Shown here: piece after piece, positions 14,119 through 15,783 of the stretch
Layout: each line of letters opens with the position of its first letter
Numbering within the stretch: the first letter of the stretch is position 1
Assembly (NCBI GenBank): GCA_030596125.1
Contig: JAUVKT010000017.1
Span: forward strand, 1 to 38,759
Direction of reading: 5' to 3'
DNA: 38,759 bases
DNA from: Bacteroidales bacterium
GTDB lineage: Bacteria > Bacteroidota > Bacteroidia > Bacteroidales > VadinHA17
The notes under the pieces: model-generated
Seen by the model: only the letters and a program-made list of their open reading frames with translations
The model's database searches: none
What the model was told of the DNA's origin: nothing
Position numbers and translations under genes: made by a program

Positions 14119-14700
14119 TTAGGCGCCATTAATAAGTTTACTGTATATCATGTTACAGACCCAGGCATCAGTTGCAGCGTAAATTAACTGACCATCTGAC
14201 AATTGTTCCTTTTCCCAATTTGTCACCTGTTGTCTCTTTGAAATGGTAAATCCCAGGATGATAGCAGATAGTTTTTTCAGACCGGCACTCTTTATCCCAA
14301 AATCTTTTACCATATCCTGCAGTTCAATAAACCCTGCCGGTGTAAAATCTGCCCACTCTCTTAGCCCTTTAATATCATCCCTGATTGCAACTCCTGGTTT
14401 TATTATATTCTTGTCAGACAAGATAGATATGAGCTGTATCGGGAGTCCGATCTTATTAATGCGAAAAAGATATGCTTTGGTAGCTGTAGATAATTGCAGC
14501 ATTGCTATCTTGTTATATTTACCTTTCCTGAATGTGGGACGTGTCTCTGTATCAAAACCAACTATACTGTTATTCTTCAGGTCCTCAAAAATGCTATCGA
14601 GGTTATTCATATTCTCTACTACTACAATTTCACCCTCAAAATGCTCTACCCCAAACTCCGTTAGCTCCTCTTTGGATACCTCCTCCCTATAATTCATCAT
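14119..14700 (-). CDS. DEDD-type 3'-5' exonuclease, RNase D-like
   Basis: The 193-aa protein is a stand-alone DEDD exonuclease domain. Exo I is VGFDTETRP with the catalytic Asp and Glu. Exo II is a conserved Asp in the RDDIKGL segment. Exo III is the YAATDAWVCNMIYSKL end motif with a catalytic Asp and a nearby Tyr. Such proteins remove nucleotides from 3' ends of RNA or DNA; the substrate is unknown for this short form without HRDC domains. The start MMNY overlaps the 3' end of the DUF5063 gene by 14 bp, or 11 bp if the second Met is used, which suggests translational coupling. Confidence 0.9.
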   Translation of the reverse strand: MMNYREEVSKEELTEFGVEHFEGEIVVVENMNNLDSIFEDLKNNSIVGFDTETRPTFRKGKYNKIAMLQLSTATKAYLFRINKIGLPIQLISILSDKNIIKPGVAIRDDIKGLREWADFTPAGFIELQDMVKDFGIKSAGLKKLSAIILGFTISKRQQVTNWEKEQLSDGQLIYAATDAWVCNMIYSKLINGA

Positions 14701-15319
14701 CGTTATTCTTTTTAAAATCAGACATTCGTTTTGATATTATCCAGCCGGAAGTATCTCTCCCTTCCGAATCAATCTGTTTATGCTCACCTTCTTTTCCTAT
14801 TAATTCGGGATTTAGAAGTGCATTATGTATTGCACGTAAAGCACTTAACAGTTTTTGTCCCCAGTAAAGCCTGGAATTCTCCCTGCATTCCCAGAGGGCA
14901 TCATTCATCAAATCGACAGTTCCCATACTGTAAACAATAAGATAATCCTTCATATCCTGGAATATATCAGCAAGATTCTCCGCAATTGAGCCTATCACAG
15001 GAAGTTCACTATCAGAAACAGAATTATCAAATGCCTCTGGAAAATCGTTAGCTTCTCCAAGCTTAACCACTATCATTTCATCTATTTCCTTCCACTTCTC
15101 TTCTGTAACAAATTTTTCAGGTGACTCTTCCATCACGGGTTCAACCTCAGGCAGACTGAGACTCTTTGAATACAGAAGCGGCAGCAAACGTTGCATAAAA
15201 ACCAATATCTGCTCTCCTTTATATTTGGAAGAAGTTTCAATAAAATTGCAATACTCGTTTGCAACAGCTGTAAATTCAATTACCTCTTTGGAATATACTA
15301 TATGTTCGAGATTTTTCAT
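14687..15319 (-). CDS. DUF5063 domain-containing protein
   Basis: The 210-aa soluble, acidic and mostly helical protein fits the DUF5063 family, which in Bacteroidota commonly sits directly upstream of a 3'-5' exonuclease, as it does here. The N-terminus (LEHIVYSKEVIEFTAVANEYC) and the central IVYSMGTVDLMNDALWECRENSRLYWGQKL segment are the most family-like parts. No catalytic motif is visible and function is unknown. The ATG at 15317-15319 lies within a CATATG hexamer that can pair with another CATATG 23 bp upstream in the transcript, the last hairpin of an unusual leader. It is the first gene of the operon. Confidence 0.75.
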   Translation of the reverse strand: MKNLEHIVYSKEVIEFTAVANEYCNFIETSSKYKGEQILVFMQRLLPLLYSKSLSLPEVEPVMEESPEKFVTEEKWKEIDEMIVVKLGEANDFPEAFDNSVSDSELPVIGSIAENLADIFQDMKDYLIVYSMGTVDLMNDALWECRENSRLYWGQKLLSALRAIHNALLNPELIGKEGEHKQIDSEGRDTSGWIISKRMSDFKKNNDDEL

Positions 15320-15514
15320 ATGTTTATAATTTAATTTTTATTGGTCATATGCAGCTCTCATGACAAAATTTAATCATACCACTGTGTGTTAAAATAGAAT
15401 AAATTTTGTCATGTTCGGTTCATGTGTTTATAATTTATTTTCAATGGTCACATGGAACCGCATTAAATGAATAATCATTCCCCTGTGTGAAAAAAATAAT
15501 TATTCTTTTAATGC
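15317..15514 (-). promoter_or_regulatory. Structured leader: two copies of a two-hairpin unit before the DUF5063 operon
   Basis: Read on the minus strand, each unit of about 101-104 nt has a 55-nt hairpin (b) then a shorter hairpin (a). Hairpins b2 (15514-15460) and b1 (15413-15359) are both exactly 55 nt and align without gaps. Their central segment, CACACAG(G/T)GG(A/T)ATGATTA, is the same at 16 of 18 positions, while the stems differ and still pair: b1 has a perfect 14-bp stem, b2 pairs at 18 of 20 positions. Hairpins a2 and a1 have 6-bp ends, CATGTG/CACATG and CATATG/CATATG, around an A-rich loop containing ACCA and AAATTATAAA. The last stem contains the operon start codon. A -7 box lies 27 bp upstream. 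Confidence 0.6.
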
Positions 15515-15540
15515 TTGTTTCATAACAATAATTCAGAGTG

Positions 15541-15548
15541 CAAAATTA
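15541..15548 (-). promoter_or_regulatory. Candidate -7 element for the DUF5063-exonuclease-rlmI-tex-fak operon
   Basis: On the minus strand this octamer reads TAATTTTG, an exact match to TAnnTTTG. Transcription would begin near 15534, so the leader would be about 215 nt and include all four hairpins. No clear TTG was found at the -33 position. Confidence 0.5.
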
Positions 15549-15625
15549 GACATTTAAAAATAACTAATGAACTCATTTAATAATTGGGAGGATTATTAGT
15601 TTTTGTACCATGGGTACCAAGGTAT

Positions 15626-15722
15626 TAGGCAGTAGGCAGTTGGCAGTTGGCAGTTGGCAAAGGCAGTTGGCAGTTGGCAATTGGCAGTTGGCAATAGGCA
15701 ATAGGCAGTTGGCAGTTGGCAA
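15626..15722. repeat. Tandem heptamer array (T[T/A]GGCA[G/A])
   Basis: Fourteen consecutive units follow the pattern TTGGCAG, TTGGCAA, TAGGCAG or TAGGCAA. Thirteen are 7 bp and one (15661-15666) is 6 bp, 97 bp in all. GGTACC words immediately upstream (15611-15623) continue the same GG phase. It lies between recQ and the DUF5063 leader and codes for nothing that I can support. Confidence 0.9.
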
Positions 15723-15783
15723 AAGGTGTTAGAAACGGGGAGAAACGGGAAACGAAGAAGAAAAATCTGTTCTATAAATCAAC

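What the first reader, a model, noticed from the sequence alone, without database searches (positions are those of the whole stretch)
15317..15534. Possible new structured leader RNA: tandem two-hairpin units with covarying stems
Seen directly: on the minus strand two 55-nt hairpins (15514-15460 and 15413-15359) align without gaps and share the central segment CACACAG(G/T)GG(A/T)ATGATTA. Their stem sequences are almost unrelated, yet both arms change together so that pairing is kept (14 of 14 and 18 of 20 pairs). Each is followed by a smaller hairpin whose 6-bp ends also covary (CATGTG/CACATG, CATATG/CATATG) around a shared A-rich loop. Conserved loop plus covarying stems is the usual mark of a selected RNA or single-stranded DNA structure. 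It lies between a TAnnTTTG box and the DUF5063-exonuclease-rlmI-tex-fak operon, and the last stem contains the operon start codon. Inference: a tandem cis-regulatory RNA (ligand, protein or autoregulation by an RNA-processing product of the operon). A mobile palindromic element is the main alternative.
Basis: partly seen in the sequence, partly recalled or inferred. Interest (0 to 1): 0.82.

Follow-up and report, generated by a model that had tools for sequence, protein, structure and literature searches.

The report
Start-codon-targeting mini IS110-like mobile elements
The two hairpin units are not a leader RNA of one operon but two nested copies of a roughly 105-base mobile element that lands on the start codon of many unrelated genes, keeps that start codon intact, and appears to be a satellite of an RNA-guided IS110 transposon.

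Summary
In detail: two hairpin units (15419-15523, 15315-15423, minus strand) with a conserved core and covarying stems. They do not belong to this operon: a model of the unit matches 35 places in the host draft genome, 85-141 in three other Bacteroidota, and 50 of 119 genomes of the order (host included). It is absent upstream of all 24 DUF5063 homologs that could be checked. Units are bounded by ATGAA; of 69 sampled units not followed by another element, 51 end on the start codon of an ORF of at least 100 codons. The window pair is one unit inserted at the ATG left by another. The left half matches left ends of IS110 transposons that insert at the same ATGAA; a model built only from such left ends ranks these two units first and second in the window. 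The host carries broken pieces of such an IS110, including its bridge/seekRNA-like region, whose two loops read (A/G)TGAAA in 19 of 19 aligned relatives. Best reading: non-autonomous, start-codon-targeted IS110 satellites; movement in trans is inferred, not shown, and IS110 presence did not track units. IS900 is a precedent for start-codon targeting; my searches found no such satellite family.

The parts
15419..15523 (-). Unit 1 (105 nt): ATGAA, large hairpin around CACACAGGGGAATGATTA, small hairpin, ATGAA; inserted at the inferred original start codon
   Evidence: covariance-model match E 3.4e-19 (the unit is one of the 30 the model was built from); 99% copy elsewhere in the genome, L003
15315..15423 (-). 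Unit 2 (109 nt), inserted at the ATGAA left by unit 1; its terminal ATG is the DUF5063 start codon
   Evidence: covariance-model match E 1.6e-20 (likewise part of the model); 99% copy elsewhere, L002
15460..15514 (-). Large hairpin of unit 1
   Evidence: unit 1 folds with z -7.3
15359..15413 (-). Large hairpin of unit 2
   Evidence: unit 2 folds with z -3.3
15472..15489 (-). Core CACACAGGGGAATGATTA of unit 1, matching IS110 left ends
   Evidence: nhmmer with a model of six IS110 left ends: 15489-15470, E 1e-4, best of the window
15371..15388 (-). Core CACACAGTGGTATGATTA of unit 2
   Evidence: same model: 15414-15371, E 0.0012, second best; third best E 4.4
15421..15454 (-). Small right hairpin of unit 1, CATGTG...CACATG, holding the terminal ATG
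   Evidence: covarying middle base, 35 of 41 units Watson-Crick
15317..15351 (-). Small right hairpin of unit 2, CATATG...CATATG, holding the DUF5063 start codon
15519..15523 (-). Left ATGAA: inferred original start codon of the DUF5063 gene; now opens a 7-codon uORF (15523-15500)
   Evidence: sequence; in 89 of 91 units the leftover start codon meets a stop inside the unit
15541..15548 (-). TAATTTTG, presumed native Bacteroidota-type promoter box outside the units
   Evidence: sequence; similar boxes lie close to the start in several DUF5063 homologs without units, e.g. L210, L213-L215; promoter type recalled
14687..15319 (-). DUF5063 gene whose start codon is the units' right end
   Evidence: PF16702, E 4.1e-41

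Best explanation
The region holds two nested copies of a ~105-nt non-autonomous mobile element related to a Bacteroidota group of IS110 insertion sequences. Shown: the units are dispersed, are bounded by ATGAA, sit mostly on start codons, and share a left-end core, the terminal ATGAA and an A/T-rich right end with IS110s that insert at the same site, several of them directly beside a unit. Inferred: an IS110 DEDD recombinase supplied in trans, guided by its bridge/seekRNA whose two loops carry ATGAAA, recombines a circular unit (right end joined to left end at ATGAA) into an ATGAA in the chromosome. The left ATGAA is the old start codon and the right end supplies a new ATGAA, so the gene keeps its start codon and gains a 5' UTR ending like AAATTATAAACANATGAA. 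Covarying stems would be kept because the fold matters for mobility and/or because insertion at a start must leave translation working. In the window this happened twice.
For: Dispersal: 70 stretches in the host at E<=10; 50 of 119 order genomes, host included; 141, 138 and 85 matches in Labilibaculum sp. K2S, Carboxylicivirga sp. M1479 and a Lutibacter MAG (names). Target: of 40 units bounded by the model rather than by my pattern, 39 begin and 40 end with ATGAA. Of 82 distinct sampled units, 13 are followed by another unit or IS110 left end (the script said 15; L301 and L305 re-read as starts of RuvA and ABC-transporter genes), and 51 of the other 69 end on the ATG of an ORF of >=100 codons; in the window 11 of 167 ATGAA sites are gene starts and 15 more are intergenic (Fisher p 1e-25 against all sites, 0.007 against intergenic plus start sites). 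Link to IS110: the left-end model from six IS110s has the two units as the top two hits in the window, 18.1 and 14.7 bits, against 10.4 for the best of 20 shuffles; the unit model has hits at the left-end position of IS110 loci L181, L184, L180 (E 0.00014-0.016) and weakly of L163, L164 (E 0.35); IS110s sit at ATGAA junctions beside units. The host's own IS110: left ends after a unit at two contig ends, L011 and L014; right end plus guide-RNA region at the start of contig C81 (E 1.3e-6), ending ATAATAAACAT|ATGAA on the start codon of a 279-codon Pterin_bind ORF. Guide region: ATGAAA in loop 1 and (A/G)TGAAA in loop 2 in 19 of 19 aligned Bacteroidota relatives; also in L138, L168, L178, not in L136, L137, L140 (targets of these three not examined).
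Against: No transposition was observed. IS110 transposase (PF01548) was found in only 5 of 12 unit-rich genomes, 4 above the curated cut-off, and not in the host. In the 22 genomes common to it does not track units: 3 of 10 with units, 6 of 12 without. The guide-RNA model hits only 6 of 119 genomes, 5 of them with units. Drafts break inside these IS110s, so absence is weak evidence, but the association is unproven. The units' CATNTG arm was not seen in the IS110 right ends read. The unit core resembles its own genome's IS110 most in only one of four genomes tested, G114. Start-codon preference is partly what ATGAA plus loss from genes would give.
Confidence: 0.75

Rival explanations
1. REP/BIME-type palindromes moved by a RAYT (Y1 tyrosine transposase); IS110s merely use them as landing sites, as IS621 and ISPa11 do with REPs.
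For: Short, palindromic, high-copy, covarying stems; six Y1_Tnp matches in the host; IS110-family insertion into REPs is known (reference list of PMC11208160; passage of PMC11187229). IS110 presence does not track units.
Against: None of the six Y1_Tnp loci (about 1.5 kb each side where the contig allows) carries a unit; only matches of 11-28 nt, best E 0.002, at the CCCGATTTATCGGG palindrome. Landing alone does not explain why IS110 left ends share the units' core and why IS110s and units share both junctions.
Confidence: 0.13
2. A cis-regulatory leader RNA (riboswitch, protein-binding leader or autoregulation) of the DUF5063-exonuclease-rlmI-tex-fak operon.
For: Structured, in the 5' UTR, start codon inside the last stem.
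Against: Absent upstream of 24 of 24 checkable DUF5063 homologs in relatives; same element at many unrelated genes; no Rfam match at gathering score.
Confidence: 0.04
3. Domesticated elements: once mobile, now kept as a dispersed translational control module at many start codons (small hairpin plus uORF).
For: Start codon held in the covarying small hairpin; leftover start codon gives a short uORF in 89 of 91 units.
Against: The target genes looked at share no theme that I could see (PGK, RuvA, isocitrate/isopropylmalate dehydrogenase family, amino acid kinase and others; not tested systematically). Copies 99% alike at unrelated loci speak for recent movement; tandem arrays look like insertion.
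Confidence: 0.08

Closest known systems
IS110/IS1111 insertion sequences with bridge RNA / seekRNA (IS621, ISEc21, ISEc11; PMC11208160, PMC11208158, PMC11187229: passages read)
   Same: Same transposase family in the related autonomous elements (PF01548 and PF02371); site-specific insertion; a noncoding region with two loops that hold target-like sequence.
   Different: The units have no transposase and no such region (no ORF of 80 aa or more within them; no NCR-model hit in the window). In this Bacteroidota group the region lies downstream of tnp, while it is upstream in L141, L175 and L182 from other phyla.
IS900 of Mycobacterium (title of Doran 1997 seen in the reference list of PMC8141618; target details recalled)
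   Same: IS110-family element that targets translation start signals.
   Different: Different phylum; I recall no satellite family of ~105 nt with covarying hairpins for it.
Bacterial MITEs, e.g. MITECca01 from IS982 in Cardinium (PMC9769881, passages read)
   Same: Short non-autonomous repeats sharing ends with an autonomous IS; Cardinium is also Bacteroidota (recalled).
   Different: Parent is an IS982 element with terminal inverted repeats; the term 'start codon' does not occur in that paper's text.
REP/BIME with RAYT (PMC2817692, start of abstract seen in the search listing only)
   Same: High-copy palindromic repeats.
   Different: No Y1 transposase found beside units in the host.

Membership tests
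Non-autonomous derivative of IS110 | Left end shared with an autonomous IS110 | tested here: met
   IS110 left-end model ranks the two units first and second, E 1e-4 and 0.0012, next 4.4
Non-autonomous derivative of IS110 | Right end shared with the autonomous IS110 | tested here: inconclusive
   Host IS110 right end ..AATAATAAACATATGAA resembles unit ..AATTATAAACATATGAA over ~20 nt by eye; the CATNTG arm of the unit was not seen in IS110 right ends
Non-autonomous derivative of IS110 | Same insertion target | tested here: met
   ATGAA at the junctions of units (40 model-bounded units: 39 left, 40 right; the other 42 were extracted with ATGAA in the pattern) and of IS110s (script found an A/T-rich end followed by [A/G]TGAA in 18 of 26, two of these doubtful (L142, L154), 8 of 26 not resolved)
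Non-autonomous derivative of IS110 | No transposase of its own | tested here: met
   No ORF of 80 aa or more between 15320 and 15895
Non-autonomous derivative of IS110 | Moved in trans by the IS110 recombinase | not testable with these tools
   needs an experiment; presence of IS110 did not track units
Autonomous IS110 | DEDD transposase plus noncoding guide-RNA region | tested here: not met
   No ORF of 80 aa or more in the units; NCR model gives no hit in the window at E<=0.1
REP/RAYT | Cognate Y1 transposase gene flanked by the repeats | tested here: not met
   0 of 6 host Y1_Tnp loci have a unit
cis-regulatory leader RNA | Conserved upstream of orthologous genes | tested here: not met
   0 of 24 checkable DUF5063 homologs; 25 relatives gave a match, one without upstream sequence
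cis-regulatory leader RNA | Member of a curated Rfam family | tested here: not met
   0 matches at gathering score in the window and in 15 loci

The most novel reading that the evidence does not exclude
The unit hairpin is a miniature guide loop: its core (CACACAG-NGGN-ATGATTA) copies both strands of the second loop of the IS110 bridge/seekRNA (5' strand CACACAGG.. or CACCAACCG.., 3' strand ..ATGAAAATTT) without the apical stem, between covarying stems as in that loop. The units would then be satellite guide-RNA elements that bind the IS110 recombinase as RNA and ride it to start codons, and the left end of IS110 would itself be such a mini loop in the transposase mRNA leader. Evidence: IS110 left ends share 7-10 nt with the 5' strand of their own NCR loop in 17 of 22 elements, in three classes (CACACAGG, CACCAACCG, ACAAAAG); mean longest match 7.6 for own against 5.1 for loops of other classes, but those also reached 9. 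Five elements shared 5 nt or fewer, three of them because the script took no region or the wrong one.
Probability: 0.2. Interest if true: 0.86.

Novelty: new variant of a known kind. Interest (0 to 1): 0.63.

Why it matters
If right, a bridge-RNA recombinase group has evolved to use the start codon itself as its address: a motif found in every genome, where insertion can be nearly harmless because the start codon is rebuilt. An IS110 copy rebuilds the start of a phosphoglycerate kinase gene (L184), and a unit ends on the start of a cytidylyltransferase-like gene that I would call CoaD (L124). More than a hundred natural insertions per genome in two genomes would give a ready data set on how these recombinases choose targets and tolerate divergent donor ends, and would show satellites for IS110, which my literature searches did not turn up. 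It also warns that structured 5' UTRs with covariation can be mobile elements rather than riboswitches.

Tried and rejected
Operon-specific leader RNA: rejected and by dispersal. Rfam families: no match at gathering score. RAYT: six Y1_Tnp matches in the host, none beside a unit. IS110 Pfam searches in the host gave nothing, and the pieces were found only by reading contig ends and with the NCR model. Unit core against the same genome's IS110 core: clear only for G114, not for G000, G158, G159. NCR folding alone is not convincing: z -0.06 to -2.97 in four sequences. Consensus folding of the unit alignment captured only 11 pairs because the long stems differ in length between subfamilies, so arms were tested directly; a first version mis-split units and its pairing figures are not used (its uORF counts are). 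still truncates some right arms, including unit 2 of the window. ORF length from the unit's ATG misses genes starting a few bases further on, e.g. L015, L115, L301 and L305. The samples of units are not random: 42 were extracted with a pattern that demands ATGAA on the left and ATG on the right, 40 are high-scoring model hits of three genomes. Guide assignment (which loop strand is which guide, which DNA strand is transcribed) could not be settled: in IS621 the order within the target loop is stem, left guide, stem loop, right guide (PMC11208158 passage), while here ATGAAA is on the 3' side. Literature: nine searches; none listed a report of IS110 satellites at start codons; of six papers only passages were read; the library lacks most subscription papers.

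Full report
OBSERVATION. The sequence is as described. Unit 1 spans 15523-15419 and unit 2 15423-15315 on the minus strand; they overlap only in a shared ATGAA. Each has a large hairpin around CACACAG(G/T)GG(A/T)ATGATTA, then a 6-bp hairpin around an A-rich loop whose 3' arm holds an ATG. Folding beats shuffles for both (z -7.3 and -3.3).

IT IS A DISPERSED REPEAT. The 218-nt region matches 70 stretches of the host draft (G000, 2.7 Mb, 165 contigs) at E<=10. Units 99% identical lie at other genes: L002 for unit 2, L003 for unit 1. A covariance model from 30 units of the host and relatives (A1, R1) gives 35 matches in the host, 141 in Labilibaculum sp. K2S, 138 in Carboxylicivirga sp. M1479, 85 in a Lutibacter MAG and 3 in a Lentimicrobium MAG (150 candidates scored per genome; names), and at least one match in 50 of 119 order genomes of at least 90% completeness, the host among them (32 candidates scored per genome).

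COVARIATION. Across 22 representatives (below 80% alike, from 80 usable of 91 units; of the 11 dropped, 9 carry an extra inserted palindrome) own arms pair at mean -10.9 kcal/mol, swapped arms at -6.4; 0 of 10,000 permutations reached the own total, and own was the best partner in 6 of 22. In the small hairpin CATNTG..CAN'ATG, N and N' are Watson-Crick in 35 of 41 units (C-G 16, G-C 14, A-T 5; one further unit could not be parsed), against at most 27 in 20,000 permutations. Neither test removes relatedness between units. Selection on the fold is the usual reading; hairpin-templated correction of imperfect palindromes during replication (recalled) could give the same pattern and was not excluded.

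WHERE UNITS LIE. Of 40 units whose bounds were set by the model, 39 begin with ATGAA (one with GTGAA) and 40 end with it; the other 42 were extracted with a pattern that demands it. Of these 82 distinct units, not a random sample, the script called 15 'followed by the next element'; I re-read two of these as starts of RuvA (L301) and ABC-transporter (L305) genes, leaving 13. Of the other 69, 51 end on the ATG of an ORF of at least 100 codons. In the window outside the units, 11 of 167 ATGAA sites are gene starts and 15 others are intergenic. Start codons are therefore enriched strongly against all ATGAA sites (p 1e-25) and modestly against intergenic plus start sites (p 0.007): much of the preference may come from the ATGAA motif itself plus loss of insertions inside genes. 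In the window the TAATTTTG box (15548-15541) lies outside the units, 17 nt before the left ATG. None of 24 DUF5063 homologs with upstream sequence has the core or the small hairpin. The simplest history is one insertion at the original start codon followed by a second insertion at the ATGAA so formed.

LINK TO IS110. At two host contig ends a unit is followed, after ATGAA, by a left end with the same core and then an ORF beginning MPKKNQYIEYEQVIER that is cut by the contig end. A related full transposase (L066, 413 aa) is PF01548 plus PF02371. A genome scan with it gave 78 loci, of which I read the flanks of 27. In the Bacteroidota members of the ATGAA type the left junction is ATGAA followed by a left end with a core, and the right end is A/T-rich and closes with [A/G]TGAA; a script resolved 18 of 26 right ends (L142 and L154 doubtful), 12 of them, not counting L154, opening an ORF of at least 100 codons or open to the contig end for 65 codons or more; 8 of 26 unresolved. 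One of them (L184) restores the start of a phosphoglycerate kinase gene (PF00162). IS110s sit after a unit in L134, L151, L160, L163, L164 and, as left ends at broken contigs, in L325, L326, L337, L338, L342 and, with 8 nt visible, L329. A profile of six IS110 left ends from other genomes, ATGAA excluded, ranks the two window units first and second of the 38.8 kb (E 1e-4, 0.0012; third 4.4); best of 20 shuffles 10.4 bits against 18.1 and 14.7. Conversely the unit model has matches at the left-end position of L181, L184, L180 (E 0.00014-0.016) and, weakly, of L163 and L164 (E 0.35).

THE GUIDE-RNA REGION. These IS110s have a ~150-nt noncoding region after the transposase with two hairpins. In an alignment of 19 (A2), the first loop carries ATGAAA and the second (A/G)TGAAA in 19 of 19. 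Of other Bacteroidota regions read, L138, L168 and L178 carry it and L136, L137 and L140 do not. Relatives from other phyla have the region upstream of the transposase with other letters there (L141, L175, L182). This fits the published bridge/seekRNA logic, in which a loop strand copies the target (PMC11208160 and PMC11187229, passages), but guide roles are inferred, and folding energy alone is weak (z -0.06 to -2.97 in four sequences; 1 to 88 of 200 shuffles as good). A model of this region (R2) finds it at the start of a host contig (C81:25-86, E 1.3e-6). That contig reads on through ATAATAAACAT|ATGAA into a 279-codon ORF (PF00809), so the host genome holds an ATGAA-type IS110 right end, cut by assembly.

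MECHANISM. Proposed: IS110 recombinase and guide RNA in trans, a circular unit as donor, ATGAA as shared core and target; orientation and start-codon restoration follow. Shown: shared left-end core, shared target, tandem nesting, presence of IS110 pieces in the host. Not shown: trans-mobilisation, circles, RNA binding. The leftover start codon opens a uORF stopped within the unit in 89 of 91; in the window it is 7 codons.

RESULTS AGAINST. PF01548 was found in 5 of 12 unit-rich genomes, 4 above the cut-off, and did not track units in the 22 genomes common to (3 of 10 with units against 6 of 12 without, one of the six below the cut-off). R2 hit 6 of 119 genomes, 5 of them with units. The unit's CATNTG arm has no counterpart in the IS110 right ends read. 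Unit cores were closest to their own genome's IS110 only in G114. The test of shared letters between left end and NCR loop gave 7 nt or more in 17 of 22, five failing or mis-parsed, and comparisons across classes also reached 9 nt.

NOVELTY. IS110 members aimed at start signals are known (IS900: title of Doran 1997 seen in a reference list; details recalled). MITEs of other IS families are known (PMC9769881). Nine literature searches listed no report of IS110 satellites at start codons. I class it as a new variant of a known kind.

Noticed in passing
window 15600-15740, minus strand: Head-to-tail heptamers (GCCAACT/GCCTACT types) just upstream of the units; similar heptamers stand upstream of the unit in L011.
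   Followed up: no
L009, L012-L018, L048, L127, L304, L336: Smaller palindromes (TCCCGATTTATCGGGA, CCGATAACTATCGG, GGCAGGCAGGC types) inside units, several at the same place in different units: nested palindromic repeats.
   Followed up: no
L049, L052, L053, L054, L055: Shortened forms at start codons: the small right hairpin alone (L049, L052, L054), or with the large hairpin replaced by a short G+C palindrome (L053, L055).
   Followed up: partly
IS110 loci L131-L197: Left-end core and the 5' strand of the second NCR loop share letters within three classes (CACACAGG, CACCAACCG, ACAAAAG).
   Followed up: partly
L141, L175, L182 against Bacteroidota IS110 loci: The same two-hairpin NCR lies upstream of the transposase in other phyla and downstream in the Bacteroidota loci read.
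   Followed up: partly
L040-L045: Six Y1_Tnp matches in the host; whether they have REPs of their own was not examined.
   Followed up: no
L327, L328, L330, L331 (G114): Units fused head to head with an inverted partial unit near contig ends.
   Followed up: no
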